From an uncultured Oscillospiraceae bacterium (GTDB taxonomy: Bacteria > Bacillota > Clostridia > Oscillospirales > Oscillospiraceae): a stretch of 64,000 bases of DNA. Made by a program: the position numbers and the translations under genes. Below the pieces are notes generated by a model. It was not told the DNA's origin. It was given only the letters and a program-made list of their open reading frames with translations, and made no database searches. Position 1 is the stretch's first letter; each line of letters begins with the position of its first letter. This document shows, piece after piece, positions 1 to 51,011 of the stretch. The stretch covers positions 1 to 64,000 of the forward strand of contig CALXEH010000002.1 of NCBI GenBank assembly GCA_944387285.1. Direction: 5' to 3'.

Positions 1-177
<177 letters not shown>

Positions 178-7275: not shown

Positions 7276-7287
7276 CGATCCTGTCCG

Positions 7288-7323
7288 AAACGGCCCCGGC
7301 GCCAATGCCGGGGCCGTTTTTTT
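7288..7323 (+). terminator. Rho-independent terminator after the DUF4914-like gene
   Basis: A stem of 13 pairs (7288-7300 with 7307-7319), core CGGCCCCGGC / GCCGGGGCCG, 6-base loop, then a T run to 7323. Confidence 0.85.
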
Positions 7324-7344
7324 GTCCGCAGCGGAGCTTTCTGT

Positions 7345-7374
7345 TTGCAGGGACGGCGGGCCGTGGTGTATAAT
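7345..7374 (+). promoter_or_regulatory. promoter of the TetR-type regulator
   Basis: TATAAT at 7369-7374 is exact. TTGCAG (7345-7350) with an 18-base spacer is a weak -35. The start codon follows 28 bases after the -10 element. Confidence 0.5.
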
Positions 7375-7402
7375 CGTGAAAAGGCGAAAGGAGGCGCGCG
7401 GC

Positions 7403-7975
7403 ATGGAGGAACAGAGGGAACGAGGCTCGGAGGCCACAAAATACCGCCTGGCCCGGGCCATGGAGGAGTGCATGCGCCGTATGCCCGTGGAGGCCGTCAC
7501 GGTGACGAACGTCGCCGAGACCTGCGGCGTCACGCGCCAGACCTTTTACCGCAACTTCCTGGACAAGTACGACCTCATAAACTGGTACTTCGGCAAGCTG
7601 CTCGAGCGCTCCTTCGAGCACATGGGCAGCGGGCGCACCATAGCCGAGGGCCTGGAGCGCAAGTTCGAGTACATCCGCAAGGAGCGGGTGTTCTTCACCG
7701 CCGCCTTCCGCGCCGACGGCACGAACAGCCTCAAGGAACACGACTTTGAGGCGATCATGGCCTTCTACCTCGGCATCATCGAAAAACAGACCGGCGCCGC
7801 CCCGCCGGAGGACCTGCGCTTTTTGCTCGAGCTCTATTGCCGCGGCTCCGTGGCCATGACCGTCAAATGGGTGCTCGGCGGCATGAAGGAGGCCCCGGCC
7901 GAGATGTCCCGGCGCCTCGTCGCCGCCCTGCCCGAGCCGCTGCGGCAGCTCTTCGCCCGTCTGTCCTTACTGTGA
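7403..7975 (+). CDS. TetR/AcrR family transcriptional regulator
   Basis: About 190 residues. Residues 14-60 form the TetR helix-turn-helix (VTVTNVAETCGVTRQTFYRNFLDK). The C-terminal half resembles the DhaS-like type of ligand domain (family known for activators of dihydroxyacetone kinase), which is an impression, not a proof. ATG 7403 is chosen because AAAGGAGG lies just upstream; a longer reading would run into the promoter. It precedes fucO in the same direction with a 122-base gap containing a separate promoter and a palindrome, so fucO is a plausible target. Confidence 0.88.
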   Translation: MEEQRERGSEATKYRLARAMEECMRRMPVEAVTVTNVAETCGVTRQTFYRNFLDKYDLINWYFGKLLERSFEHMGSGRTIAEGLERKFEYIRKERVFFTAAFRADGTNSLKEHDFEAIMAFYLGIIEKQTGAAPPEDLRFLLELYCRGSVAMTVKWVLGGMKEAPAEMSRRLVAALPEPLRQLFARLSLL

Positions 7976-8009
7976 GGGCGGACGGGTTACATTTTTGCGC
8001 ATTTGTCAC

Positions 8010-8063
8010 TTTACGCGGGAAGCGGAAGGGAATAAAATACCCACAGATAGTTAATTATTTAAC
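8010..8063 (+). promoter_or_regulatory. fucO promoter and possible operator
   Basis: TTTACG (8010-8015), 17 bases, TAAAAT (8033-8038). Just after the expected start lies the palindrome GTTAATTATTTAAC (8050-8063), a possible repressor site. The SD of fucO is GAAAGGAG. Confidence 0.45.
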
Positions 8064-8097
8064 CATAAGCCTCAACATCTGAAAGGAGTAATGTTCC

Positions 8098-9243
8098 ATG
8101 GCAAACCGCATAATGCTCAACGAGACCTCCTATCACGGCGCGGGCGCCGTTGCCGCCATCCCGGGCGAGATTGCCGCGCGCGGGCTGAAGAAGCCCCTGG
8201 TCTGCTGCGGCCCGTCCATACTGAAGCACGGCGTCGTGGCGAAGGTGACCGACCTGCTGGACGCGGCCGGCATCGGGTACGAGATCTTCTCCGACATCAA
8301 GGCCAACCCGACCATAGAGAACGTGCAGGCGGGCGTGGCGGCCTTCAAGGCGGCGGGCGCGGACTGCATCGTGGCCATCGGCGGCGGCAGCCCCATGGAC
8401 ACCTCCAAGGCCATAGGCATCATCATAAACAACCCCGAGTTCGCCGACGTGCGCAGCCTTGAGGGCGTGGCGGACACGAAGAAGCCCTGCGTGCCCATCA
8501 TCGCCGTGCCGACCACGGCGGGCACCGCGGCCGAGGTCACGATAAACTACGTCATCACGGACGTGGAGCGCCGCCGCAAGTTCGTCTGCGTCGACCCTCA
8601 CGACATGCCGGTGGTCGCCGTCGTCGACCCCGAGATGATGGATTCCATGCCGAAGGGCCTCACCGCCGCGACGGGCATGGACGCCCTGACCCACGCCATC
8701 GAGGGCTACACCACCCTGGCGGCCTGGGAGATGACGGACATGTTCCACCTGAAGGCCATTGAGCTCATCTCGAAGAACCTGCGCGGGGCCGTTGCGGGCA
8801 CGAAGGAAGGCCGCGAGGGCATGGCCCTGGGCCAGTACATCGCGGGCATGGGCTTCTCGAACGTGGGCCTGGGCATCGCCCACAGCATGGCGCACACCCT
8901 CGGCGCGGTGTACGACACGCCGCACGGCGTGGCCTGCGCGATGATGCTGCCCATCGTCATGGAGTACAACGCCGAGTGCACCGGCGAGCGCTACCGCGAG
9001 ATCGCGCGCGCCATGGGCGTCAAGGGCGTCGATGGGATGAGCCAGGCCGAGTACCGCGCCGCCGCCATAGAGGCCGTGCGCAAGCTCTCCGCCGACGTGG
9101 GCATCCCCGCGAAGCTCGAGGCCCTGAAGGAAGAGGACCTGCCCTTCCTCGCCGAGAGCGCCTATAACGACGCCTGCCGTCCCGGCAACCCCAAGGAGAC
9201 CAGCGTGGAGGACCTCACCGCCCTCTTCCGCAAGCTCATGTGA
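8098..9243 (+). CDS. fucO: Lactaldehyde reductase (iron-dependent alcohol dehydrogenase)
   Basis: 381 residues, closely matching E. coli FucO along its length: the opening MANRIMLNETSYHGAGAV, the NAD motif GGGSPMDTSKAIGII, PTTAGTAAEVTINYVITD and the iron ligands in GMDALTHAIEG, SMAHTLG and YDTPHGVA (one Asp and three His). FucO reduces L-lactaldehyde to (S)-1,2-propanediol with NADH, recycling NAD in anaerobic fucose or rhamnose use. It stands alone between its own promoter and terminator. Rhamnulose-1-phosphate aldolase, which makes lactaldehyde, is encoded 9 kb away (18573-19379). A broader 1,3- or 1,2-diol dehydrogenase role cannot be excluded. Confidence 0.93.
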   Translation: MANRIMLNETSYHGAGAVAAIPGEIAARGLKKPLVCCGPSILKHGVVAKVTDLLDAAGIGYEIFSDIKANPTIENVQAGVAAFKAAGADCIVAIGGGSPMDTSKAIGIIINNPEFADVRSLEGVADTKKPCVPIIAVPTTAGTAAEVTINYVITDVERRRKFVCVDPHDMPVVAVVDPEMMDSMPKGLTAATGMDALTHAIEGYTTLAAWEMTDMFHLKAIELISKNLRGAVAGTKEGREGMALGQYIAGMGFSNVGLGIAHSMAHTLGAVYDTPHGVACAMMLPIVMEYNAECTGERYREIARAMGVKGVDGMSQAEYRAAAIEAVRKLSADVGIPAKLEALKEEDLPFLAESAYNDACRPGNPKETSVEDLTALFRKLM

Positions 9244-9263
9244 GCCGCGAAGGCATAAAAAGA

Positions 9264-9298
9264 CCCCGGACGGGCCAAAACCCGTCCGGGGATTTTTT
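9264..9298. terminator. Bidirectional Rho-independent terminator
   Basis: An 11-base perfect stem, CCCCGGACGGG / CCCGTCCGGGG (9264-9274 and 9281-9291), loop CCAAAA, with a T run on the plus side and TCTTTTTA on the minus side. It serves fucO and the convergent zinc-ribbon gene. Confidence 0.9.
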
Positions 9299-9308
9299 GT
9301 CCTGGGCC

Positions 9309-9776
9309 TTATTTGTCTTCGTCCTCGTCCTCGTCCTCGCCGTCGATGGGCTCGACGCCCTCAAACTCGAGGGTCTCGCCGCAGTTCGGGCACTCTATGG
9401 AGCCGAGGTCCAGCACGTCCTCGTCGATGGTGATGGTGTTCTCGCAGGCGGGGCAGGTGACCTCGTAGAACACGGGCTCGCCGTCCTCGTCCTCGCCGCA
9501 GCAGCAGCCGCCGCAGTAGTCCTCATCCTCATCGTCGTCATCTTCGTCCTCGTCCACGTCGTAGACGATGTCCTCGATGTCGGAGAGGTCGTCGCTCACC
9601 TGGTCGATGGCCTCGCCGAGCTCCCAGGCGTTTTCCTCCAGGTCCTCGATGTCGTGCGCCAGGTCCTCGAGAATGTCCATGATGGCGTCGAGCACGCGGC
9701 CCTCTTTAGTTTCCTTGTCTATGCCGAGGCCCTCGGCCAGACCCTTCAGATAGGCCACCTTTTCGGAAGTTGTCAT
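9309..9776 (-). CDS. CD1247 N-terminal-domain protein with zinc ribbon
   Basis: 155 residues. Residues 1-50 (opening TTSEKVAYLKGLAEGLGID, then a predicted helix through EDLAHDIEDLEENA) fit the CD1247 N-terminal domain common in Clostridia. A very acidic Asp/Glu run follows (about 74-86), then CGGCCCG, then a two-CxxC zinc ribbon (CPAC near 109 and CPNC near 129) and an acidic tail. The start is ATG 9776, preceded by GAGGAGG. The function is unknown; a regulatory or rRNA-associated role is only a guess. It follows efp by 34 bases on the same strand and ends at the shared terminator. Confidence 0.85.
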   Translation of the reverse strand: MTTSEKVAYLKGLAEGLGIDKETKEGRVLDAIMDILEDLAHDIEDLEENAWELGEAIDQVSDDLSDIEDIVYDVDEDEDDDDEDEDYCGGCCCGEDEDGEPVFYEVTCPACENTITIDEDVLDLGSIECPNCGETLEFEGVEPIDGEDEDEDEDK

Positions 9777-9810
9777 ACCTGCTCCTCCTCTCGGATAATC
9801 AGAATAGTGT

Positions 9811-10374
9811 TCAGCCCTTCGCGCGCTCCAGGTACTCGCCGGTGCGCGTGTCGATCTTGATCTTGTCGCCCTCGTTGATGAAGAGGGGCACCTTGACCTC
9901 GGCGCCGGTCTCGAGCGTCGCGGGCTTGGTGGCGTTGGTGGCGGTGTTGCCGGCAAAGCCCGGGTCGGTCTGGGTGACCTCGAGCTCCACGAAGTTGGGC
10001 GGCTCGACCGCGAACACGTTGCCCTTGTAGCTCATGACCACGCAGACCATGTTCTCCTTCACGAACTTGAAGCTGTCGCCCAGCAGAGAGCCGTCGATGG
10101 GGATGAGCTCATAGCTCTCGGGGTCCATGAAGTAGTAGAGGTTGCCGTCGGCATAGCTGTACTCCATGCTCTTGCGCTCGACCGTGGCCTCCTCGAACTT
10201 CGCCGTGGGGTTGAAGGAAGTCTCGGTGACGGCGCCGGTCATGACGTTCTTCATCTTGGTGCGGACAAAGGCCGCGCCCTTGCCGGGCTTGACGTGCTGG
10301 AAGCTGACGACGGTCATGACCTGCCCGTCCATCTCAAAGGTGACGCCGTTTCTGAAATCGCCTGCTGTTATCAT
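9811..10374 (-). CDS. efp: Translation elongation factor P
   Basis: 187 residues with the KOW-like N-terminal domain, central OB domain and C-terminal OB domain. EF-P enters the ribosomal E site and relieves stalling at polyproline. The modification loop reads [10 protein letters not shown] with Lys32 at the tip, as in Bacillus EF-P, where this lysine carries 5-aminopentanol. The genes linked to that modification, ymfF and ymfH, are present at 40071-42639. It has its own promoter (10404-10432) downstream of the aminopeptidase gene, the same neighbour pair as yqhT-efp in Bacillus. Confidence 0.97.
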
Positions 10375-10403
10375 AAATCCTGTCCTCCTGTGGCAGATTG
10401 ATT

Positions 10404-10432
10404 AATATAACCAAGATATTTTACACTATGAA
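10404..10432 (-). promoter_or_regulatory. efp promoter
   Basis: On the minus strand TTCATA (10427-10432), 17 bases, TATATT (10404-10409). The start codon of efp lies 30 bases downstream, with an AGGAGG ribosome site. Confidence 0.6.
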
Positions 10433-10456
10433 ACGCATTTTGGCAAGTACCAACGT

Positions 10457-11527
10457 TTACAGTATCAGCAATTCCTTCGGCGCCTTCGTGATGTCGACGC
10501 AGCCCTCGCCGGTGAGGTAGAGCACGTCCTCGATCCTGACGCCGAAGCGGCCCGGCAGGTAGATGCCCGGCTCGGCGGAGATGACCGCGCCCTCGGGCAT
10601 GGGCCTGGTGTTGGAGGGTGCCGCCGTGGGCTGCTCGTGGATGTCGAGGCCGACGCCGTGGCCGAAGCCGTGGCCGAAATACGGCCCGTAGCCCGCGTCG
10701 GCTATGACCTTGGCCGCCGCGTTGTGGATATCCGCGCCGGTGACGCCGGGCCGCGCCTTTGCGATGCCGGCCTTCTGCGCCTCGAGCACGGTGTAATAGA
10801 CGTTTTTCATCTCCTCCGTCGCGCTGCCTATGGCCACGGTGCGCGTCATGTCGGAGCAGTAGCCGTCCTTCACGCAGCCGAAGTCCATGGTGACGAAGTC
10901 GCCGGCCTTGAGCCTCTCGTCTCCCGGCACGCCGTGGGGCATGCTGCTCTTGGCGCCGGTGACGACTATGGGGTCGAAGGAGTTGCCCTCCGCCCCGTGC
11001 AGGCGGAGCCTGTAGGTGAGCTCGGCGGCGATCTCGCGCTCCACCGCGCCGGGCTTCAGCAGGGGCAGGACCTCCTCCAGCGCCTTTTCGGCTATGCGCT
11101 GCGCGGCGACCAGGCTCCCGAGCTCCTCGGCGGTCTTGCAGGCGCGCAGCGCCGAGAGCAGCTCCTGGGCCGGCAGCAGCCTCAGGCCCAGCGCCTCCTC
11201 CAGCCTGAGCCAGGCGGCGTGGCTGAGTTTTTCCTCCTCGGCCCCGAGCTTTTCAGCCCCGGCCTTTTCCAGCAGTTCCGCCAGTATGCGCGCGATCGGC
11301 CGCTCCCTCGTCGTCAGTATGACCTCTACGCCCTCGGCCGCCTGCCTCTGCGCCGCCTCGATGTAGCGCGAATCCGTGACCAGCCAGGCCGCGTCGCGCG
11401 TGACCAGCGCCGCGCTGTCCGTGGGCAGAAAGCCCGTGGCGTAGAAGATGTCCCGGTCGTCCATGAGCAGCAGGGCGTCCAGCCCGCGCTCGGCCACCGC
11501 TTCCTTGACCATCAAAGTGTTTGCCAT
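10457..11527 (-). CDS. Xaa-Pro aminopeptidase, M24B family
   Basis: 356 residues: an N-terminal creatinase-like domain (1-125) and a pita-bread metallopeptidase domain. The metal ligands are visible in MDFGCVKDGYCSDMTRT (two Asp), HGFGHGVGLDIHE (His), SAEPGIYLPG (Glu) and VRIEDV (Glu). The enzyme removes N-terminal residues before proline. Its SD is GGAGG. It follows the GerMN-like lipoprotein gene by 17 bases, so it may share the comEA operon transcript, while efp next door has its own promoter. The pairing with EF-P matches Bacillus yqhT. Confidence 0.93.
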   Translation of the reverse strand: MANTLMVKEAVAERGLDALLLMDDRDIFYATGFLPTDSAALVTRDAAWLVTDSRYIEAAQRQAAEGVEVILTTRERPIARILAELLEKAGAEKLGAEEEKLSHAAWLRLEEALGLRLLPAQELLSALRACKTAEELGSLVAAQRIAEKALEEVLPLLKPGAVEREIAAELTYRLRLHGAEGNSFDPIVVTGAKSSMPHGVPGDERLKAGDFVTMDFGCVKDGYCSDMTRTVAIGSATEEMKNVYYTVLEAQKAGIAKARPGVTGADIHNAAAKVIADAGYGPYFGHGFGHGVGLDIHEQPTAAPSNTRPMPEGAVISAEPGIYLPGRFGVRIEDVLYLTGEGCVDITKAPKELLIL

Positions 11528-16187: not shown

Positions 16188-16220
16188 AGCCCTGTCCCCT
16201 TCGGGATGGGGCTTTGTTTT
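16188..16220 (+). terminator. Rho-independent terminator
   Basis: AGCCCTGTCC / GGATGGGGCT (16188-16197 and 16204-16213, two G-U pairs), 6-base loop, then TTGTTTT. Confidence 0.7.
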
Positions 16221-16245
16221 GAACTGCGCTGAAAGGAGCGACGCT

Positions 16246-18576
16246 ATGACTGACCTTGAACTCATCCGCCTCTGCGAAGGGGCGGACTGCTGGCACACGC
16301 GCGGCGTGCCGGAGCTGGGCCTGCACCCGCTCATGATGTCCGACGGGCCGCACGGCCTGCGCAAGCAGGAGCGCGCGGGCGACATGCTGGGCATGAACCG
16401 CTCCAAGCCCGCCGTCTGTTTCCCTGCGGCGGTGCTCACGGCCTGCGGCTGGGACTTGGAGCTCCTGCGCGAGATAGGCGCCGCCATAGCCCGCGAGGCG
16501 CTGTCAGAGGGCGTCGGCCTCGTGCTCGGGCCCGGCGCGAACATCAAGCGCAGCCCGCTCTGCGGGCGGAACTTCGAGTATTTCTCCGAGGACCCGCTGC
16601 TCACGGGCCGGCTGGCCGCCGCCTTCATCGAGGGCCTGCAGGCCGAGGGCGCGGGCGCCTGCCTCAAGCACTTCGCCTGCAACAACCAGGAATACAAGCG
16701 CTTCTCCTCGGACAGCCGCGTGGACGAGCGGACGCTGAGGGAGATCTACCTGCGCGGCTTCGAGCTGGCCGTGAGGGCCGCAAAGCCCGCCGCCCTCATG
16801 TGCGCCTACAACAGCGTAAACGGCGAGCACTGCTCGGACAACCGCCGGCTGCTGACGGACATCCTGCGCGGCGGCTGGGGCTTTGAGGGCGCGGTCATAA
16901 GCGACTGGGGCGCGGGGAACGACAGGCTGCGCGGCATCAAGGCCGGCTGCGACCTGCTCATGCCCGGCGGCTCGGGCTATATGGAGGCGGACTGTCTTCG
17001 AGCCATGGACAGGGGCGAGCTCAGCCGCGAGGAGCTGGAGCTCTGCGCCGGGCGCGTGGAGCGCCTTGCGCGAAAGTACGCCGCGGCGGCCTCGGCGGGC
17101 CGCGCCTGCGACTACGCCCGGGACCACGAGCTCGCCCGCCTGGCGGCGGAGCGCTGCGCCGTGCTGCTCAAGAACGAGGGCGGCATCCTGCCGGTAAAGG
17201 ACCGGGCCGGGACGGTGTTCATAGGCGACATGGCGGCGCATCCGCGCTATCAGGGCGCGGGCAGCAGCCATATAAACCCGAAAAAGCTCACGAGCGCGGC
17301 GGGCTGCTGCCCCGACATAAAGTGGGTGCAGGGCTGCCTCGCAGACGGCGGCACCACGGGCGAGCTCATCGCGGCGGCCGAGCGCGCGGCGCGGTCGGCA
17401 AAGACGGCGGTGGTGTTCGCGGGCCTGCCGGCGCAGTACGAGTCTGAGGGCTTTGACCGCGCGGACATGTCCATGCCCGAAGGACACATCCGGCTCATCG
17501 AGGCCGTGGCGGCGGCGAACCCGGACACCGTGGTCGTGCTCTCCTGCGGCGGGGCCGTGGAGTGCCCCTGGGCGGACAGGGTGCGCGGCATACTCTACAT
17601 GGGCCTGCCGGGCGAGGCGGGCGGCGAGGCCATTGAGCGGCTGCTCTTCGGCGCGGCGAACCCCTCCGGCAAGCTGGCGGAGAGCTGGCCGATGCGGTAT
17701 TCGGACAGCGCCGTCTCGGAGCACTACGGCGAGCGCGACCCGCTCTACCGCGAGGGCCTCTACGTCGGCTACCGCTGGTATTCGAGCGCCGGGATACCGG
17801 TGCGCTTCGCCTTCGGCCACGGGCTGAGCTACACGGAGTTTGAGTATTCGGACATGGCCGTCGGGGACGGCGCGGTCAGCTTCACGCTGACGAACGCCGG
17901 CAAATGCGCCGGCGCGGAGGTCTCGCAGCTGTATTTCGTCCCGCCCGAGGGCGCGTACTACCGGCCGCGCCTGAACCTCTGCGGCTTTGCGCGGACGTAT
18001 CTGGAGCCGGGCGAGAGCCGCCGGGTGAGGCTGGATATCGCAAAGGAGAGCCTGGAGGTCTGGACCCCGGCGGGCTGGCGCACGCCGGGCGGGGAATACC
18101 GGCTGCTGCTGGGTTCTGGCAGCGCGGATATCCGGCTCGAGGCGGCGCTGACGCTGCCGGAGACGGAACTGCCCGAGCCGCCGGAGACGCCGGGCTGGTA
18201 CTTCGCGCCCCAGGGCAAGCCGAGCACGGCGGATTTTGAGCGGCTGCTGGGCCGGCGCCTCGCGCCCCGGCCCGTCCGGAAGGGCACATACACGATGGAG
18301 AGCACGCTCACGGACCTCTGCTGCAGCTGCCGCTCGGCCCGGCTGCTGAAGCTGGCGCTCGAGCAGGTGCTCGTCAGGGCCGGCGGCGGCGACAAGTCCT
18401 CGCCGGAGTACAAAATGATGCTCTCCTCGGCGGCGGACGCCTCGCTGAGCGCCATGCAGATAAACGGCGGCATACGCGGGCCCTGGCTCGGCGCGCTGCT
18501 GGAGCTGGCCAACGGCAGATACAAAAACTGCCTCGGGCTGCTGGCCCGGGGCCTCAGGAAGGCGGTGAAGGGATGA
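16246..18576 (+). CDS. Glycoside hydrolase family 3 beta-glucosidase-type enzyme
   Basis: 776 residues. GH3 N-terminal barrel with SDGPHGLRKQ, KHFACNNQE and the nucleophile Asp in GAVISDWGAGNDR (about 220), then the GH3 C-terminal domain (GLPGEAGGEAIERLLFG), then a fibronectin-III-like domain (about 535-620). The last 95 residues form a helical tail beginning YTMESTLTDL that resembles the two tiny proteins encoded at 50505-50956. There is no signal peptide, so the enzyme acts on imported glycosides. ATG 16246 is supported by AAAGGAG. It overlaps rhaD by four bases, which suggests a rhamnose-containing glycoside substrate; that is inference. Confidence 0.93.
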   Translation: MTDLELIRLCEGADCWHTRGVPELGLHPLMMSDGPHGLRKQERAGDMLGMNRSKPAVCFPAAVLTACGWDLELLREIGAAIAREALSEGVGLVLGPGANIKRSPLCGRNFEYFSEDPLLTGRLAAAFIEGLQAEGAGACLKHFACNNQEYKRFSSDSRVDERTLREIYLRGFELAVRAAKPAALMCAYNSVNGEHCSDNRRLLTDILRGGWGFEGAVISDWGAGNDRLRGIKAGCDLLMPGGSGYMEADCLRAMDRGELSREELELCAGRVERLARKYAAAASAGRACDYARDHELARLAAERCAVLLKNEGGILPVKDRAGTVFIGDMAAHPRYQGAGSSHINPKKLTSAAGCCPDIKWVQGCLADGGTTGELIAAAERAARSAKTAVVFAGLPAQYESEGFDRADMSMPEGHIRLIEAVAAANPDTVVVLSCGGAVECPWADRVRGILYMGLPGEAGGEAIERLLFGAANPSGKLAESWPMRYSDSAVSEHYGERDPLYREGLYVGYRWYSSAGIPVRFAFGHGLSYTEFEYSDMAVGDGAVSFTLTNAGKCAGAEVSQLYFVPPEGAYYRPRLNLCGFARTYLEPGESRRVRLDIAKESLEVWTPAGWRTPGGEYRLLLGSGSADIRLEAALTLPETELPEPPETPGWYFAPQGKPSTADFERLLGRRLAPRPVRKGTYTMESTLTDLCCSCRSARLLKLALEQVLVRAGGGDKSSPEYKMMLSSAADASLSAMQINGGIRGPWLGALLELANGRYKNCLGLLARGLRKAVKG

Positions 18577-45266: not shown

Positions 45267-46577
45267 ATGGACTGGAGAGAAAAATACGCTGACAAGATAG
45301 TCTCGGCGCAGGAGGCCATCAGCCATGTGCGCTCCGGGGACACGATACATTCGACGATGTTCTCCTCCCTGCCCTACGCGCTGTTTGACGAGCTGGGCGC
45401 GCAGAAGAACAGGCTGGAGGACGTGAACATCTACATGGGCTTCGGCGGCGGGCTGTACCGGCCCCTGGCCAAGGCCTGCAACGGGCATGTGAACGTGAAC
45501 AGCCTCTTCCTCGGCCCGGCCGAGCGCACCTTCATGTACAAGATGGGCTCGCATGTGAACGTGCAGATACTCCAGCTCTCGCGCACCTTCGACGACCGCA
45601 GCCGCATCCACCCCGGCGACGTCATCATGATGGCCGCCACACCTCCCGACGAGGACGGCATGATGAGCTTCGGCCTCACGCCCATAGACACGGCCCTGTG
45701 CGAGCAGGCCCGCTGCGTCATCCTGCAGGTGAACGAGAACGTTCCATTTGTGCGCGGCGTAGACAACATGGTGAATATAAAGGACGTCACCTGCGTCATC
45801 GACAAGACCCAGAACCTCTGCGTCATGCCGGTCACGGAGCCCTCGGAGCTGGACAATAAGATAGCCGACATCATCGCCGAGCGCATACCCGACGGGGCCT
45901 GCATCCAGTTCGGCATCGGCGGCCTCGGCATAGCCATGGGCTACCGCTGCAAGGACAAGCGCCACCTCGGCATACACACGGAGCTCTTCGTCGAGTCCAT
46001 GGCCGACCTCATGGAGTGCGGCGCGGTGGACAACTCCATGAAGGCCATAGACAAGGGCATCAGCACCTTCGGCTTCGCCATGGGCAGCGACAGGCTCAAC
46101 AAGTTCCTCGACCACAACCCGCTGTGCGAGTCCCGGCGCTTCATGTACTCGAACGACCCCTACATAATCGCCAAAAACGACAACGTCATTTCGGTCAATT
46201 CGGCCATGCAGGTGGACATCACGGGCCAGGTCGCCGCGGAGGGCATAGGCTTCAAGCAGTACAGCGGCATAGGCGGGCAGCTCGACTATGTGCGCGGCTC
46301 GCAGCTGTCGAAGGGCGGGCACTCCTTCATAGCGCTCGAGTCCACCCGCAAGGAGAAGGACGGCACGCTCAAGTCCAAGATCGTCATATCCCACCCGGCG
46401 GGCACGCCCATCACGACGCCGAGGGCCGAGGTGGAGTACATCGTCACCGAGTACGGCGTCGCCGACCTCAAGTATGAGACGCTAGACGTGCGGGCCAAGC
46501 GCCTCATCGCCATAGCGCACCCGGATTTCCGCGAGGAGCTGACCGCCGAGGCCAGGAAGCTGGGGCTGCTGGTATGA
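45267..46577 (+). CDS. Acetyl-CoA hydrolase/transferase family CoA-transferase
   Basis: 436 residues of the 4-hydroxybutyrate/butyryl-CoA:acetate CoA-transferase type. The catalytic Glu (E239) is in GIHTELFVESM, and CoA-binding glycines are in YSGIGGQLDYVRGS. The family moves CoA from an acyl-CoA to acetate or another acid in fermentation. It begins a new transcript and is followed by a broken MBL-fold gene and then the 2-oxoacid:ferredoxin oxidoreductase genes, so it could convert the acyl-CoA they make into free acid and conserve energy. Confidence 0.9.
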   Translation: MDWREKYADKIVSAQEAISHVRSGDTIHSTMFSSLPYALFDELGAQKNRLEDVNIYMGFGGGLYRPLAKACNGHVNVNSLFLGPAERTFMYKMGSHVNVQILQLSRTFDDRSRIHPGDVIMMAATPPDEDGMMSFGLTPIDTALCEQARCVILQVNENVPFVRGVDNMVNIKDVTCVIDKTQNLCVMPVTEPSELDNKIADIIAERIPDGACIQFGIGGLGIAMGYRCKDKRHLGIHTELFVESMADLMECGAVDNSMKAIDKGISTFGFAMGSDRLNKFLDHNPLCESRRFMYSNDPYIIAKNDNVISVNSAMQVDITGQVAAEGIGFKQYSGIGGQLDYVRGSQLSKGGHSFIALESTRKEKDGTLKSKIVISHPAGTPITTPRAEVEYIVTEYGVADLKYETLDVRAKRLIAIAHPDFREELTAEARKLGLLV

Positions 46578-46897
46578 AAAAGCTCTGGAAGCAGAGGCTC
46601 GAGCCGTTCAGGATCTGGGGCAACCTCTGGTTCTGCGGCAGCGTGCCCTCCTCCTGCCACGTCATCGACACGGGCGAGGGGCTCATCCTCATCGACCCGG
46701 GCCTGCCCGAGACCTTTTACCTGGTCGTGCAGGGGCTCTGGGAACTGGGCTTCGAGCCGAAGCAGGTGAAGGCCATCCTGCACACGCACGGGCACTACGA
46801 CCACGCGGGCGCGACGAAGCTGCTGCTCGGCCTCGCGCCGGAGGCGAAGACCTACATCGGCGCGGGCAGTGAAACAGGAAGTACGTTTTTGACATAA
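46574..46897 (+). pseudogene. Truncated metallo-beta-lactamase-fold protein
   Basis: 107 residues. The first 95 match the N-terminal part of an MBL-fold hydrolase, with GLILIDPGLPET and the metal motif HTHGHYDH (HxHxDH, about 70-77). The rest of the domain (usually another 120 or more residues) is missing; after KTYIGAGS the sequence turns AT-rich and stops at 46897. It overlaps the CoA-transferase stop (ATGA). Downstream metal ligands are lost, so it is probably inactive. Confidence 0.75.
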
Positions 46898-46921: not shown

Positions 46922-47887
46922 ATGAAAATAGCAATGGTCGGCTCAGGCGCGGCCGGCAGCGTGTTCGCGGGCTATCTGAGGCTGGGCGGCGCGGACCTGA
47001 CGCTGGTGGACCCCTATAAGGAGCACATGGACAAGATCGCCGCGGACGGGCTCACCTTCGTCGTGAACCCCGGCGAGACACGTCAGCTCACGGGCTTCAA
47101 GACCGCGTACACGGCCGACGACATCGGCATCATGGATATCGTCATATTCATGACCAAGACCCCGCAGCTGGATGCGGCGCTCAAGGGCGCGGCGCCCTGC
47201 ATAGGCCCCGAGACGGTGCTGGTCTCGCTGATGAACGGCCTCGGCAACGAGGACAAGCTGGTGAAGGCCGTCCCGCCCGACAGGGTGCTCTACGGCAGCG
47301 GCGTACTGGGCACGGAGCTGCCCGAGCCGGGCAAGTGCATCTCCTCGCCCTCGGCGGACGGGCTGCAGATGAACTTTGGCGCGGTGGAGCACGGCCCGCT
47401 CGCGGACGCTGCGGGCGCGGAGCTCGAGAGGCTCTTCAACGCCGGCGGCTGCCCCTGCAAGTTCTGGGACGACGTTAGGCCGCATCTCTGGCAGAAGATC
47501 ATCACGAACTGCACCTTCAACCCGCTCTCCGCCATACTCAGGCTCAGGGCCAAGGACATCATGAAGGACATGAACGGCGCGGGCCTCGCCATCCAGGTGG
47601 TCACCGAGTGCTGCGCCGTGGCGACGGCCAAGGGCTGCCCCATGACCGCCTCCGAGTTCATGGCCGAGCTGCGCAAGTCGGTCAGCGGCGGCTCCATAGA
47701 GGAGTACTTCCCCTCCATGGCCCAGGACGTGCTCATGTTCAAGCGCCAGACCGAGATCGGCACGCTCAACGGCGCGATCTCCAAGTACGGCAAGGCGCTC
47801 GGCATACCCACGCCGGCCAACGACATGATAACCAAAATTATTTCCTGCATCCAGAAGAACTACGACAAGCAGTATCAGGAAGACTAG
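46922..47887 (+). CDS. Ketopantoate reductase-family (ApbA/PanE) dehydrogenase
   Basis: 321 residues: a Rossmann NAD(P) domain with GSGAAGSVFAGYL (7-19) and a helical C-terminal domain with the catalytic Lys in LWQKIITNCTFNPLSAI (NxxxN motif region). Family members reduce 2-ketopantoate or other 2-keto acids to hydroxy acids. Being in the 2-oxoacid oxidoreductase operon suggests a 2-keto acid substrate rather than pantothenate synthesis, which is inference. The SD is AGGAGG. Confidence 0.88.
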   Translation: MKIAMVGSGAAGSVFAGYLRLGGADLTLVDPYKEHMDKIAADGLTFVVNPGETRQLTGFKTAYTADDIGIMDIVIFMTKTPQLDAALKGAAPCIGPETVLVSLMNGLGNEDKLVKAVPPDRVLYGSGVLGTELPEPGKCISSPSADGLQMNFGAVEHGPLADAAGAELERLFNAGGCPCKFWDDVRPHLWQKIITNCTFNPLSAILRLRAKDIMKDMNGAGLAIQVVTECCAVATAKGCPMTASEFMAELRKSVSGGSIEEYFPSMAQDVLMFKRQTEIGTLNGAISKYGKALGIPTPANDMITKIISCIQKNYDKQYQED

Positions 47888-47898
47888 GAGATGACGAG

Positions 47899-48105
47899 AT
47901 GAACAAAGCAAGCGTGGTGGCGAACCTCTGCAAGAGCTGCGGCTTCTGCGTGAAGTTCTGTCCCAAAAAGGTCATCGCGTTCGGGGATAAGCGCAATTCA
48001 AAGGGTCACTACTATCCGGTCATCGACCTGGAGGGCTGCATCGGCTGCGGCACCTGCGCAATAGTCTGTCCCGAAGCCGCGATGGAGATCGTAAAGGGGG
48101 ATTGA
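47899..48105 (+). CDS. 2x[4Fe-4S] ferredoxin-type delta subunit
   Basis: 68 residues with two cluster motifs, CKSCGFCVKFCP (11-22) and CIGCGTCAIVCP (47-58), four cysteines each. It fits the delta subunit of four-subunit 2-oxoacid:ferredoxin oxidoreductases. It is followed at once by the alpha subunit. Confidence 0.92.
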   Translation: MNKASVVANLCKSCGFCVKFCPKKVIAFGDKRNSKGHYYPVIDLEGCIGCGTCAIVCPEAAMEIVKGD

Positions 48106-48107
48106 GC

Positions 48108-49178
48108 ATGGCGAAGGAATTCATGAAGGGCAACGAGGCCATAGGCGAGGCCGCAGTCAGAGGCGGCGTGCGCTTCTTCGCAGGCTACCCCATCACCCCG
48201 CAGTCCGAGCTGCCCGAGTACCTGTCCTGGCGCCTGCCCGAGGTGGGCGGCTGCTTCGTCCAGGGCGAGAGCGAGGTCGCGTCCATCAACATGGTCTACG
48301 GCGCGGCGGCGACGGGCGTGCGGGCCATGACCGGCTCCTCCAGCCCCGGCATTTCGCTCAAGAGCGAGGGCATAAGCTACCTTTCGGCGGCGGAGCTGCC
48401 CGCCGTCATCGTGAACATGCAGCGCGGCGGCCCGGGCCTCGGCTCCATCCAGCCTGCGCAGCAGGATTACCTCCAGGCGACCAAGGCCGCGGGCCACGGC
48501 GGGTTCCGCATGCTGGTCTTCGCACCCTATACCGTGCAGGAGGCCGTGGACATAGTTTACGACGCGCCGGAGTATGCGGAACGCGACCGCAGCCCCGTCA
48601 TGATACTCATGGACGGCTGCCTCGGCACCATGATGGAGGAGGTCGAGCTGCCCCCGATGAAGGAGCTGCCCGAGAGCCCCTGCAAACCCTGGACCGTCGG
48701 CTACGACGGCACCAAGCGCGGCGGCCACCTCATCACCCCGATCTACCCCGAGGCCGGCCTCGAGGGCAAGAACAAGCTCGCCGTCCAGCGCACCAAGCGC
48801 TGGGAGGAAAACGACGTCCGGGTCGAGGAGTTCATGGTAGACGACGCCGAGTGGGTCATCGTGGCCTACGGCATGAGCGCGAGGGTCGCAAAGCAGGTGG
48901 TGCTCGACCTGCGCGAGGTGGGCTTCAAAATAGGCCTCATCCGGCCCATCACCCTCTTCCCCTTCCCGAAAAAGAGCATAGCGAACCTGGATTACACAAA
49001 GGTAAAGGGCCTCATAGACATAGAGATGTCCATACCCGCGCTCATGCGCGAGGACATAGAGCTGCAGGTGCTCGGCAGGGCGCCGGTCTATGAGTACGGC
49101 CGCAGCGGCGGCATCCTGCTCGACGACGAGAGCACAAAGGCCGCTGTACGCAAGATCATCGAAGGAGGTGAGCAGTAA
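48108..49178 (+). CDS. vorB: 2-oxoacid:ferredoxin oxidoreductase alpha subunit (VorB type)
   Basis: 356 residues. Typical alpha motifs: KGNEAIGEAAVRGGVRFFAG, YPITPQSELPEYL, GESEVASINMVYGAA and PGLGSIQPAQQDY. With the beta subunit it oxidises a 2-oxoacid to acyl-CoA, CO2 and reduced ferredoxin. The VorB-like label (branched-chain 2-oxoacids) is the most frequent name for such sequences, but 2-oxoglutarate or aromatic acids cannot be excluded. ATG 48108 follows AAAGGGGG; a TTG at 48102 is possible. It overlaps the beta gene (TAATG). Confidence 0.9.
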   Translation: MAKEFMKGNEAIGEAAVRGGVRFFAGYPITPQSELPEYLSWRLPEVGGCFVQGESEVASINMVYGAAATGVRAMTGSSSPGISLKSEGISYLSAAELPAVIVNMQRGGPGLGSIQPAQQDYLQATKAAGHGGFRMLVFAPYTVQEAVDIVYDAPEYAERDRSPVMILMDGCLGTMMEEVELPPMKELPESPCKPWTVGYDGTKRGGHLITPIYPEAGLEGKNKLAVQRTKRWEENDVRVEEFMVDDAEWVIVAYGMSARVAKQVVLDLREVGFKIGLIRPITLFPFPKKSIANLDYTKVKGLIDIEMSIPALMREDIELQVLGRAPVYEYGRSGGILLDDESTKAAVRKIIEGGEQ

Positions 49179-49936
49179 TGGCGGTTGAGAAGGTGTATAC
49201 GAAACCGAAATGCCTGCTGCCCCTTTCGAGCGGCTTCTGCCCCGGCTGCCTGCACTCGCTCGCGACCAAGCTCATCGCCGAGGCAATCGACGATCTGGGT
49301 GTCGCTGAGAAGGTCATAAACGTGCTGCCCGTCGGCTGCGCGACGATGAACAGCCTCTACTGGAAGCTCGACATGGTCACCTCCGCCCACGGCAGGGCGC
49401 CCGCCGTCGCGACGGGCATCAAGCGCTGCCGCCCGGACGCCTTGGTCTTCGCCTACCAGGGCGACGGCGACCTGGCCTCCATCGGCCTGTCCGAGGTGCT
49501 CATGGCCGCCAACCGCGGCGAGCACATCACCATCTTCTTCGCGAACAACTCCACCTACGGCATGACCGGCGGCCAGATGGCCCCGACCACGCTGGTGGGC
49601 CAGAAATCCACCACCTGCATCTACGGGCGCGACCCGGACACCATGGGCTATCCCCTGCGCATGTGCGAGCTCATAAAGGAGCTCGAGGCCCCGGTCTATG
49701 TGGCGCGGTTCTCGCTGAACAACCCCGCGAACATCCGCAAGGCCAAGGCCGGCATCAAAAAGGCCATGCAGAACCAGGTCGAGGGCCTCGGCTTCTCCTT
49801 CGTGGAGCTGCTGACGAACTGCCCGACGAACTGGCACATGTCGCCCGTGAAGACGCTGGAGTTCATGGAGGAACACACCATGAAATACTTCCCCTGCGGC
49901 GTCTTCGTGGACAAGACGGCAAAGGAGGGCGAGTGA
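49178..49936 (+). CDS. 2-oxoacid:ferredoxin oxidoreductase beta subunit (TPP-binding)
   Basis: 252 residues. The TPP and cluster region: FCPGCLHS, VLPVGCATMN, YQGDGDLASIG and NNSTYGMTGGQMAPTT are those of beta subunits (GDGD...NN TPP motif). The gene overlaps the alpha stop and precedes gamma by one base, so it is in a delta-alpha-beta-gamma order. Confidence 0.94.
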   Translation: MAVEKVYTKPKCLLPLSSGFCPGCLHSLATKLIAEAIDDLGVAEKVINVLPVGCATMNSLYWKLDMVTSAHGRAPAVATGIKRCRPDALVFAYQGDGDLASIGLSEVLMAANRGEHITIFFANNSTYGMTGGQMAPTTLVGQKSTTCIYGRDPDTMGYPLRMCELIKELEAPVYVARFSLNNPANIRKAKAGIKKAMQNQVEGLGFSFVELLTNCPTNWHMSPVKTLEFMEEHTMKYFPCGVFVDKTAKEGE

Positions 49937-49937
49937 G

Positions 49938-50489
49938 ATGAAATTTACGCTCATAATCTCCGGCTCGGGCGGCCAGGGCGTCATGTCGATAGGCATGTCG
50001 CTGGCGGGCAGCGCGGTCGAGGGCGGGATGCACGCGACCTTCATGCCGCTCTACGGCCCCGAGCAGCGCGGCGGCAGCGCCAAGTGCACGGTCATCGTCT
50101 CGGACAGCGAGATAGTCTCGCCCCTGCCCAAGCAGTCGGACGGCCTCATCGTCATGAACGAGACCTCGTTCAAGAAGTTCACGCCTGAGCTGAAGCCGGG
50201 CGGCGTGCTGGTGCGGAACATAAACCGCACGACCTCGGCGCTCAAGCGCACGGATATCGAGGTCGTGGACGTGCCGGCGGACGACCTCGCCCACGAGCTG
50301 GGCAGCGACAAGATAGCGAACATCATCCTCATCGGCGCGATGCTGGGCTATTCCGGCATGCTCGACCCGGCGGTATTCATGGCGAGCCTGGAGCACAAGT
50401 TCGCCGCGAAGGGCGCCGAAGTCGTGGAGCTCAACAGGAAGGCGCTGGACAAGGGCCTGGAGCTCGGCCGCGCCGCAAAAAAGGCTTGA
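49938..50489 (+). CDS. 2-oxoacid:ferredoxin oxidoreductase gamma subunit
   Basis: 183 residues. Opening SGSGGQGVMSIGMSLAGSA, YGPEQRGGSAKCTVIVSD and IILIGAMLGYSG are signatures of the gamma subunit, which binds CoA-side structures. It completes the four-subunit enzyme. Confidence 0.93.
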   Translation: MKFTLIISGSGGQGVMSIGMSLAGSAVEGGMHATFMPLYGPEQRGGSAKCTVIVSDSEIVSPLPKQSDGLIVMNETSFKKFTPELKPGGVLVRNINRTTSALKRTDIEVVDVPADDLAHELGSDKIANIILIGAMLGYSGMLDPAVFMASLEHKFAAKGAEVVELNRKALDKGLELGRAAKKA

Positions 50490-50504: not shown

Positions 50505-50717
50505 ATGGGAAAATACGGTTGGGACAGCAAGATAGGCGACCTGCTGGCTGACGAGAGGTGCGTGGCGGTGTTCAAGGAGATCCTGCCCGCGGCGCTCGAG
50601 AGCCCGCTGCTGAAGCTGGTCAAGGGCAAGCCCGTGGGCGTGGTGCTCGACAGCCAGAAGAAGATACCCCAGGAGAAGCGCGACGCCCTGAAGGCGGCGC
50701 TTGAAGCGATAGAGTAA
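50505..50717 (+). CDS. Small conserved protein A, paralogue of the next gene
   Basis: 70 residues with a good ribosome site (AAAGGAG). It aligns over most of its length with the next gene's product: IGDLLADERCVAVFKEILPAALESPLLKL against VGEMLDTPEIMELINQYIPAVLEHPLLEV, sharing a pattern of leucine/proline and the ending KAALEAI / KEALEAL. No signal or membrane segment. I do not know its function; it may be an accessory factor of the oxidoreductase operon. Confidence 0.8.
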   Translation: MGKYGWDSKIGDLLADERCVAVFKEILPAALESPLLKLVKGKPVGVVLDSQKKIPQEKRDALKAALEAIE

Positions 50718-50740
50718 AATAATTTTAGGAGGAAAGAAAA

Positions 50741-50956
50741 ATGGCAAAGTATACCTTTGAGACCACCACCGTCGGCGAGATGCTCGACACCCCGGAGATC
50801 ATGGAGCTCATAAACCAGTACATCCCCGCGGTGCTGGAGCACCCGCTGCTCGAGGTCGGCCGCAGCTTCATCTTCAACGACGCCCTGCCCTACATCGAGG
50901 ACATGGTGACCGAGGATGACCTCGCCGCCTATAAGGAGGCCCTTGAGGCGCTGTAA
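50741..50956 (+). CDS. Small conserved protein B, paralogue of the previous gene
   Basis: 71 residues, SD AGGAGG. It starts KYTFETTTVGEML, followed by helices with a central HPLLEVGRSF segment and a C-terminal acidic helix. Besides resembling protein A, its first 11 residues match the beginning of the GH3 tail (YTMESTLTDL, near 18291-18320). Its function is unknown. It ends just before a strong terminator. Confidence 0.8.
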   Translation: MAKYTFETTTVGEMLDTPEIMELINQYIPAVLEHPLLEVGRSFIFNDALPYIEDMVTEDDLAAYKEALEAL

Positions 50957-50974: not shown

Positions 50975-51011
50975 AGGCCCCGCCGGCAGGACCGGCGGGG
51001 CCTCAGTTTGT
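50975..51011. terminator. Rho-independent terminator
   Basis: AGGCCCCGCCGG / CCGGCGGGGCCT (50975-50986 and 50992-51003) with a 5-base loop, followed by a broken T run (CAGTTTGTTTT). It ends the oxidoreductase operon next to the convergent serS. Confidence 0.8.

What the first reader, a model, noticed from the sequence alone, without database searches (positions are those of the whole stretch)
50505..50956. Tandem tiny paralogues that look like the tail of a GH3 enzyme
Two ~70-residue proteins downstream of the oxidoreductase align with each other, and KYTFETTTVGEM in the second resembles TYTMESTLTDL in the C-terminal tail of the GH3 enzyme (about 18288-18320). A single small helical module may exist free and as an appended domain, possibly a docking or oligomerising unit. 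I recall similar tails on other clostridial enzymes but know of no assigned function.
Basis: partly seen in the sequence, partly recalled or inferred. Interest (0 to 1): 0.62.

Follow-up and report, generated by a model that had tools for sequence, protein, structure and literature searches.

The report
Portable helical tag on bacterial enzymes
Two tiny bacterial proteins prove to be free copies of an unnamed small helical domain that many bacteria also attach to the ends of unrelated enzymes, often several neighbouring enzymes at once, which suggests a part that holds enzymes together or caps them.

Summary
P0001 (50505-50717) and P0002 (50741-50956) are homologous 70-71-aa proteins closing a 2-oxoacid:ferredoxin oxidoreductase (OFOR) operon. 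Compared directly, the GH3 tail does not match them significantly. Through intermediates it does: a profile of 14 free modules matches 36 GH3 tails of other bacteria (E 1e-13), and those match the window-type tail (E 4e-8).

The domain has no Pfam or NCBIfam model. It is free or terminal in 131 of 133 matches: on GH3, GH78, GH2, GH43 and apiosidase-like enzymes, esterases, SDR dehydrogenases and an OFOR subunit. In one operon three consecutive enzymes (esterase, GH3, SDR) carry it. In another species GH3 and SDR form one chain, GH3-module-module-SDR. In a third, P0002 is fused to OFOR gamma. The AlphaFold model of P0002 (pLDDT 88) resembles the C-terminal domain of solved GH3 structures and, more loosely, DUF1858/ScdA_N. 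Gut beta-glucuronidases carry the sequence too, including one (7KGZ) whose C-terminal domain reportedly matters for triclosan-glucuronide processing.

Docking is my preferred function (0.45), an active-site cap the main rival. Neither was tested.

The parts
50505..50717 (+). P0001, free-standing module, 70 aa
   Evidence: ORF; homologous to P0002; 94% and 84% identical orthologues in L029 and L031
50741..50956 (+). P0002, free-standing module, 71 aa, all-helical AlphaFold model (pLDDT 88)
   Evidence: orthologues after the OFOR gamma gene in other genomes, one fused to it
18256..18573 (+). C-terminal tail of the GH3 enzyme, divergent form of the module; 'YTMESTLTDL' at about 18289-18318
   Evidence: transitive homology only
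16219..18576 (+). GH3 glycoside hydrolase that bears the tail (GH3_N, GH3_C, Fn3-like, then tail)
   Evidence: Pfam; nearest NCBIfam model exo-alpha-(1->6)-L-arabinopyranosidase, below its cut-off
49938..50489 (+). OFOR gamma subunit (POR domain), gene directly upstream of P0001; fused to the module in L099
   Evidence: Pfam PF01558 E 1.3e-36; fusion
49178..49936 (+). OFOR beta subunit (TPP enzyme C)
48102..49178 (+). OFOR alpha subunit (VorB-like)
47887..48105 (+). OFOR delta subunit (2x 4Fe-4S ferredoxin)
50975..51003 (+). terminator-like hairpin after P0002
   Evidence: 12 pairs, 11 GC

Best explanation
P0001 and P0002 are free copies of an unnamed portable helical domain of about 65-95 residues that bacteria also place at the C- or N-terminus of enzymes. 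SHOWN by sequence and fold: P0001, P0002 and modules on esterases, SDRs, GH2, GH3, GH43 and GH78 enzymes and an OFOR gamma subunit are one family; the window's GH3 tail is a divergent member linked through intermediates; the domain is nearly always terminal or free. INFERRED: it is an association (docking) domain. Modules on consecutive enzymes of a catabolic operon would bring those enzymes side by side; a free module would act as a separately encoded subunit of the enzyme beside which it is encoded. In the window, P0001 and P0002 would bind the 4-subunit OFOR, probably through the gamma subunit, to which P0002's counterpart is covalently joined in another species.
For: Homology: (a short-type profile without any GH3 row and without rows from the tested loci finds GH3 tails at iE 7.5e-7 and 2e-8, esterases 1.5e-7 and 1.6e-6, SDRs 6e-22 and 2e-21). 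Terminal position: of 133 distinct matched stretches 83 C-terminal, 36 free, 12 N-terminal, 2 internal or unclear; one of the two is the GH3-module-module-SDR fusion. Consecutive enzymes: L082 esterase 7002-7991, GH3 8013-10325, SDR 10321-11355. Fusions of what is separate elsewhere: L081 GH3-module-module-SDR, 1105 aa, against separate GH3-module and module-SDR in L082; L099 gamma-module, 276 aa, against separate gamma and P0002 in the window. A free module follows a module-bearing GH2-like enzyme in L085. Linkage: P0002-type genes go with OFOR gamma in all 7 distinct contigs examined, fused in one; of 20 gamma loci only the three closest to the window's have the module nearby, 17 do not. Fold: among Foldseek's 38 PDB matches for the P0002 model, ranks 1-4, 8 and 9 are GH3 PSTG1 chains; VIA-align 7ms2_B 675-750 Z 5.3, 65 residues, the same stretch the sequence profile picks.
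Against: No interaction was measured or modelled. Many genomes show one module-bearing protein only: each of the 26 matching genomes had one match, so module-to-module docking cannot be the rule there, unless it is self-association or the partner is untagged. In solved GH3 structures (7ms2, 9lql, 8j9f) the module is ordered enough to be aligned, with no foreign partner named in the entry titles, so it probably packs on its own enzyme or subunit. Published work on FMN-binding beta-glucuronidases, several of which carry the module sequence, puts their C-terminal domain beside the active site and ties it to substrate choice, which favours a cap. The L081/L082 rhamnosidases, which would make it four consecutive enzymes, match a leave-out profile only at E 2.4 and 0.4. 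Foldseek E-values are weak (0.7 and up).
Confidence: 0.45

Rival explanations
1. Active-site cap: the module is a mobile lid that covers the substrate entry of its own enzyme (or, when free, of the enzyme encoded beside it) and helps to hold bulky, often aromatic aglycones. ScdA_N in YtfE, a similar fold, caps a hydrophobic channel to the active site in this way.
For: PMC8748916 (passages): C-terminal domain of R. hominis GUS3 (7KGZ) critical for triclosan-glucuronide processing; C-terminal domains of these enzymes mobile and unresolved. PMC9377255 (passages): the domain flanks the active site. 7KGZ residues 654-731 match the module profile. Fold resemblance to YtfE N-terminal domain, Z 4.0-4.1; PMC9052748 (passages): ScdA_N caps a hydrophobic channel and its movement controls access. 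Many bearers act on glycosides or esters.
Against: The bearers have unrelated catalytic folds (TIM barrel, alpha/alpha barrel, beta-propeller, alpha/beta hydrolase, Rossmann, POR; folds recalled for the Pfam families), on which one domain would have to cap quite different entrances; it sits N-terminal on SDR and apiosidase-like enzymes and C-terminal on others; it does not explain the module-module pair in the GH3-SDR fusion.
Confidence: 0.3
2. General folding, stability or solubility cap: the module packs on the end of an enzyme and has no specific partner or substrate role; free copies help fold the enzyme encoded beside them.
For: Terminal position on many unrelated folds; ordered in GH3 structures.
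Against: Does not predict that free copies persist as separate 70-aa genes beside one particular OFOR isoform among many, nor the clustering on neighbouring enzymes.
Confidence: 0.15
3. The free proteins and the GH3 tail are unrelated; both merely begin with a Y-T-x-x-S/T-x-L/V-x-E/D-L helix-capping motif.
For: Direct comparison is not significant; single-sequence model of the GH3 tail gives only generic helical bundles; the intermediate-type profile does not find the window tail in its own genome at E <= 1.
Against: Intermediate GH3 tails in the same position at the end of GH3 enzymes link both ends: 73 columns at E 1.3e-13 to free modules and 76-82 columns at E 1.8e-5 to 3.7e-8 to window-type tails; column-permuted controls reached the observed score in 0 of 150.
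Confidence: 0.07
4. Relic of a redox or metal-binding DUF1858/ScdA_N domain that lost its cysteines and now acts as a small regulator.
For: Fold match to 2k5e, Z 5.1, 61 residues (that this entry is a DUF1858 protein is recalled); free modules vs 59 DUF1858 sequences: E 3.6e-5, 62 columns, score 27.8 against a maximum of 16.1 in 120 permuted controls.
Against: No conserved cysteine in the module; fused-module profile vs DUF1858 only E 0.0083 and window-type tails 0.41; says nothing about fusions to glycosidases.
Confidence: 0.03

Closest known systems
C-terminal helical domain of GH3 beta-glucosidases with solved structures (7ms2 C. thermocellum BglB; 8j9f/9lql PSTG1)
   Same: Same stretch by sequence profile (7ms2 676-753 E 4.7e-18; 8j9f 706-780 E 1.2e-16) and by fold
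   Different: There it is part of one enzyme; here also free proteins beside an OFOR. I found no paper that names it as a domain
C-terminal domain of FMN-binding gut beta-glucuronidases (7KGZ, 6MVG)
   Same: 7KGZ 654-731 matches the short profile (E 1.7e-4) and the GH3-tail profile (7.5e-8); 6MVG 686-741 the latter (5.7e-5)
   Different: The papers describe about 150 residues, unresolved in crystals; only the last part matches the module
DUF1858 (PF08984 / TIGR03980) and ScdA_N of YtfE
   Same: Similar fold of similar length, weak in-register profile similarity
   Different: DUF1858 members keep a C-x-x-C type motif (read); the module lacks it, and no Pfam hit to DUF1858 is reported for module members
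Docking domains such as dockerins or polyketide-synthase docking domains (recalled)
   Same: Terminal, portable, on several enzymes of one pathway; fusions replace them
   Different: No sequence relation reported by Pfam; interaction not shown

Membership tests
One module family (P0001, P0002, enzyme tails) | Full-length profile match between free and non-GH3 fused modules | tested here: met
   17 fused rows vs 14 free rows: E 2.8e-22, 70 columns
One module family (P0001, P0002, enzyme tails) | Full-length direct profile match of the window GH3 tail to the short modules | tested here: not met
   E 0.01, 13 columns
One module family (P0001, P0002, enzyme tails) | Match of the window GH3-tail group to GH3 tails that match the free modules | tested here: met
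   E 3.7e-8, 1.8e-5 to 5.5e-7 with stricter row choices
One module family (P0001, P0002, enzyme tails) | Same predicted fold of window GH3 tail and P0002 | tested here: inconclusive
   P0004 model pLDDT 68.7, pTM 0.49, generic helical matches
DUF1858 (PF08984) | Score above the Pfam cut-off | tested here: not met
   No Pfam family for P0001 or P0002 at E <= 1, nor for any of 33 module members at E <= 0.01
DUF1858 (PF08984) | Conserved cysteine pair | tested here: not met
   P0001 has one Cys, P0002 none; DUF1858 sequences read have C-x-x-C
DUF1858 (PF08984) | Fold | tested here: inconclusive
   2k5e Z 5.1, rmsd 2.8, 61 aligned; Z below 8 may be a common arrangement
Docking domain | Mediates protein-protein association | not testable with these tools
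   Only anatomy: terminal position, neighbouring bearers, fusions
OFOR subunit | Known POR/KOR subunit domain | tested here: not met
   No Pfam or NCBIfam OFOR model hits P0001 or P0002; they are accessory genes

The most novel reading that the evidence does not exclude
An unnamed family of portable end-domains gathers the enzymes of plant-glycoside and related catabolic pathways into complexes (or gates them), in free and fused form, inside Firmicutes cells and, with signal peptides, in the sphingomonad periplasm; the part of the mobile C-terminal domain of gut beta-glucuronidases that governs drug-glucuronide processing belongs to it, and an anaerobic oxidoreductase has recruited two free copies as subunits.
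Probability: 0.4. Interest if true: 0.85.

Novelty: new variant of a known kind. Interest (0 to 1): 0.66.

Why it matters
A domain found on at least seven enzyme classes, with no Pfam or NCBIfam model matching it here, would explain unannotated tails of many glycosidases, esterases and dehydrogenases and many orphan 70-aa genes. It offers a handle on the unresolved C-terminal domain of FMN-binding gut beta-glucuronidases, reported to matter for reactivating triclosan and discussed for mycophenolate. If it docks, it gives bacteria a simple intracellular way to build enzyme assemblies without a scaffold; if it caps, it unites substrate gating across unrelated folds. Both are testable with small proteins.

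Tried and rejected
Direct GH3-tail comparison gives no significant full-length match; I kept the link only through intermediates. A viral-contig scan with the GH3 tail found no relative. Rfam on the window gave only a partial 16S rRNA. Papers on PSTG1, on the GH3 helical C-terminus and on a shared docking module were not found. Hits I judged to be chance by reading: L021, L022, L024, L026, L027 (5 of 26). Neighbours of free modules in Oscillospiraceae and other Clostridia show no single conserved partner (28 loci, 1.5-kb flanks; the largest neighbour cluster is 7 loci and was not annotated). My first 'short' profile held one GH3 row (L116); it was removed and the test repeated. I first counted four consecutive module enzymes in L082; a leave-out profile confirms three, the rhamnosidase being unsupported on its own (E 0.4). 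DUF1858 membership was considered and rejected; common descent with DUF1858 remains possible. Architecture counts are by best BLAST to 12 representatives: GH3 38, free 38, GH78 25, SDR 7, GH2 7, esterase 6, apiosidase-like 5, GH43 1, POR 1, unassigned 5 (of which L012, L013, L016, L158 read as free genes with an open frame upstream and L086 is unclear), 133 in all; rows were made distinct by exact matched stretch, so overlapping loci can count twice, and the genome sets of the searches overlap.

Full report
OBSERVATION. Two short ORFs, 50505-50717 (P0001, 70 aa) and 50741-50956 (P0002, 71 aa), follow the gamma-subunit gene of a four-subunit 2-oxoacid:ferredoxin oxidoreductase (delta 47887-48105, alpha 48102-49178, beta 49178-49936, gamma 49938-50489). 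A terminator-like hairpin lies at 50975-51003. The two proteins are homologous: BLASTP E 2e-07 over the full length, profile E 7e-9. A profile of free modules that contains neither finds P0002 at 1e-17 and P0001 at 1e-10.

The P0002-type gene goes with the gamma gene in all seven distinct contigs looked at: window, L029 (same contig as L004), L030, L031, L032, L106, and L099, where it is fused. P0001 orthologues are in L029 (94%) and L031 (84%) as well. Gamma itself is a large family: 74 of 150 genomes of the taxonomic family have a match at E <= 1e-20, with four in this genome. Of the 20 gamma loci fetched only the three closest to the window's (the window's own included) have the module nearby; 17 do not (one of these, L234, has a chance-level hit, E 0.21). 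The module therefore goes with one OFOR isoform.

IS THE GH3 TAIL RELATED? Directly, no significant match: BLASTP E 0.27, profile-profile E 0.01 over 13 columns. Searches with the short profile led to GH3 enzymes of other bacteria whose tails are intermediate in form, reading roughly T-x-G-D-L-M ... M-P-L-R-A-L-x-x-F-S-G-G-x-x-T-E-E-x-L. Profile comparisons, with the number of rows: 14 free-standing modules vs 36 intermediate GH3 tails, E 1.3e-13, 73 columns; 17 fused non-GH3 modules vs the same, E 2.2e-15; the 36 intermediates vs 10 window-type tails, E 3.7e-8, 82 columns. With only the 7 intermediates found through profiles that hold no window-type row, against 9 window-type tails without the bridging row L150, E 1.8e-5, 76 columns. 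Permuting the columns of one side never reached the observed scores in 150 trials for each pair, but this control does not remove selection bias in how rows were gathered. A leave-out profile with no GH3 row found GH3 tails at iE 7.5e-7 and 2e-8 in a set of 279 genes. I conclude that the tail of the window's GH3 is a divergent form of the module, by transitive homology, with confidence about 0.9.

FOLD. AlphaFold2 on P0002 with six relatives gives an all-helical model, mean pLDDT 88, pTM 0.72. Foldseek against the PDB lists 38 chains with E <= 10, none significant; ranks 1-4, 8 and 9 are chains of GH3 beta-glucosidase PSTG1 (9lql, 8j9f). VIA-align places P0002 on 7ms2_B residues 675-750 (Z 5.3, 65 residues) and 9lql_A 676-753 (Z 4.8), the C-terminal stretches that the sequence profile also picks in these proteins (7ms2 676-753, E 4.7e-18; 8j9f 706-780, E 1.2e-16; the residue numbers of the entry and of the sequence differ for PSTG1). 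A second resemblance is to 2k5e (Z 5.1; [quoted passage not shown] called ScdA_N in PMC9052748). Z values of this size can be a common arrangement. Free modules against 59 DUF1858 sequences give E 3.6e-5 over 62 columns, score 27.8 against a maximum of 16.1 in 120 permutations, but fused modules (E 0.0083) and window-type tails (0.41) do not match. I treat DUF1858 as a possible distant relative, not a family assignment; the module lacks its cysteines.

WHERE THE MODULE OCCURS. Searches: 150 genomes of the family with P0002 (26 with a match at E <= 0.1; 21 of these are the module by my reading); 348 genomes of the phylum (3 with a match, the window's own included); 148 genomes of the family of G483 (35 with a match); 291 of the class (25 with a match); 98 of the G483 family with the GH3-tail profile (43 with a match). 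The sets overlap. Of 133 distinct matched stretches in fetched loci, 83 are C-terminal, 36 free, 12 N-terminal, 2 internal or unclear; some counted as C-terminal are free genes with an open frame upstream. Bearers by Pfam: GH3, SDR, esterase (BD-FAE/Abhydrolase_3), GH78 rhamnosidase, GH2, GH43, apiosidase-like, POR gamma. None of 33 module members has a Pfam family at E <= 0.01; one has a weak NCBIfam hit (RNA polymerase subunit F, E 0.0033) that I take as chance.

NEIGHBOURING BEARERS AND FUSIONS. In L082 (genome G783) esterase, GH3 and SDR follow one another, each with the module; the rhamnosidase before them aligns over full length at its C-terminus but not significantly (E 0.4). In L081 (G805) GH3 and SDR are one 1105-aa chain with two modules between them, next to a module-bearing esterase. 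L083 has two module-bearing enzymes of GH2 type (one by Pfam, the other by its similar sequence), L089 a GH43 beside a second bearer, L091 and L092 three bearers each within 19 kb. In L085 a free module follows a module-bearing enzyme of GH2 type. In sphingomonad plasmids a free module with an N-terminal signal-peptide-like stretch (my reading of the sequence; 95 and 103 aa) lies near glycoside hydrolase genes in the four regions opened, of 21 records with a match; profile E 1.3e-20 and 8.8e-18 for the two that were tested, L157 and L156.

FUNCTION. Anatomy suggests association: nearly always at an end, on unrelated folds, on neighbouring enzymes, exchangeable with fusion, and free beside one enzyme. 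The main rival is a cap. In FMN-binding beta-glucuronidases the C-terminal domain is reported critical for triclosan-glucuronide processing, mobile and unresolved (PMC8748916, passages) and beside the active site (PMC9377255, passages); the 7KGZ sequence matches the module at 654-731 (E 1.7e-4; 7.5e-8 with the GH3-tail profile). In YtfE the ScdA_N domain caps a hydrophobic channel and its movement controls access (PMC9052748, passages). Both roles can coexist: a domain that packs on a neighbouring subunit may cap that subunit's active site. I give docking 0.45, cap 0.30, general stability 0.15. The finding that many genomes have a single bearer speaks against module-to-module docking as the only mode.

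NOVELTY. The fold is in the PDB as part of GH3 enzymes and the glucuronidase domain is discussed in print, so the thing is not wholly new. What I did not find in print (searches; open-access papers only) is that these tails, the dehydrogenase and esterase tags and the free 70-aa proteins are one domain family.

Noticed in passing
G000:C10:17022-17228 (L044 1501-1710, L100): A third free module in the window's own genome, 69 aa, upstream of a D-Ala-D-Ala-ligase-like gene (my reading of the sequence).
   Followed up: partly
window 1-175, - strand: 5' end of a 16S rRNA gene, cut by the window edge.
   Followed up: no
window 46574-46897: A 107-aa ORF that reads like the beginning of a metallo-beta-lactamase-fold protein and stops early; perhaps a truncated gene inside the operon (by eye).
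   Followed up: no
window 45267-46577: CoA-transferase whose best NCBIfam match is butyryl-CoA:acetate CoA-transferase, well below its cut-off (321.8 vs 674.8 bits), at the head of the OFOR operon: substrate unknown.
   Followed up: no
L157 9929-10216; L156 11911-12222; L158 9884-10210; L159 9896-10216: Free modules (signal-peptide-like N-terminus read in L156 and L157) on sphingomonad megaplasmids, each near glycoside hydrolase genes; some loci also hold steroid- or sulfotransferase-like genes.
   Followed up: partly
e.g. G187:C1:118558-118719, G264:C1:2217782-2217943: Several DUF1858 matches read through a single in-frame TGA in an otherwise open ~75-aa frame, as selenoprotein forms would.
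   Followed up: no
L138, L078, L079, L080, L095: Apiosidase-like (DUF5060/DUF5605) enzymes carry the module at the N-terminus instead of the C-terminus (L095 by Pfam, the others by similarity).
   Followed up: partly
G136:C38, C34, C13, C93, C108; G000:C23, C92, C16: Many OFOR gamma paralogues per genome in this family, up to six.
   Followed up: no
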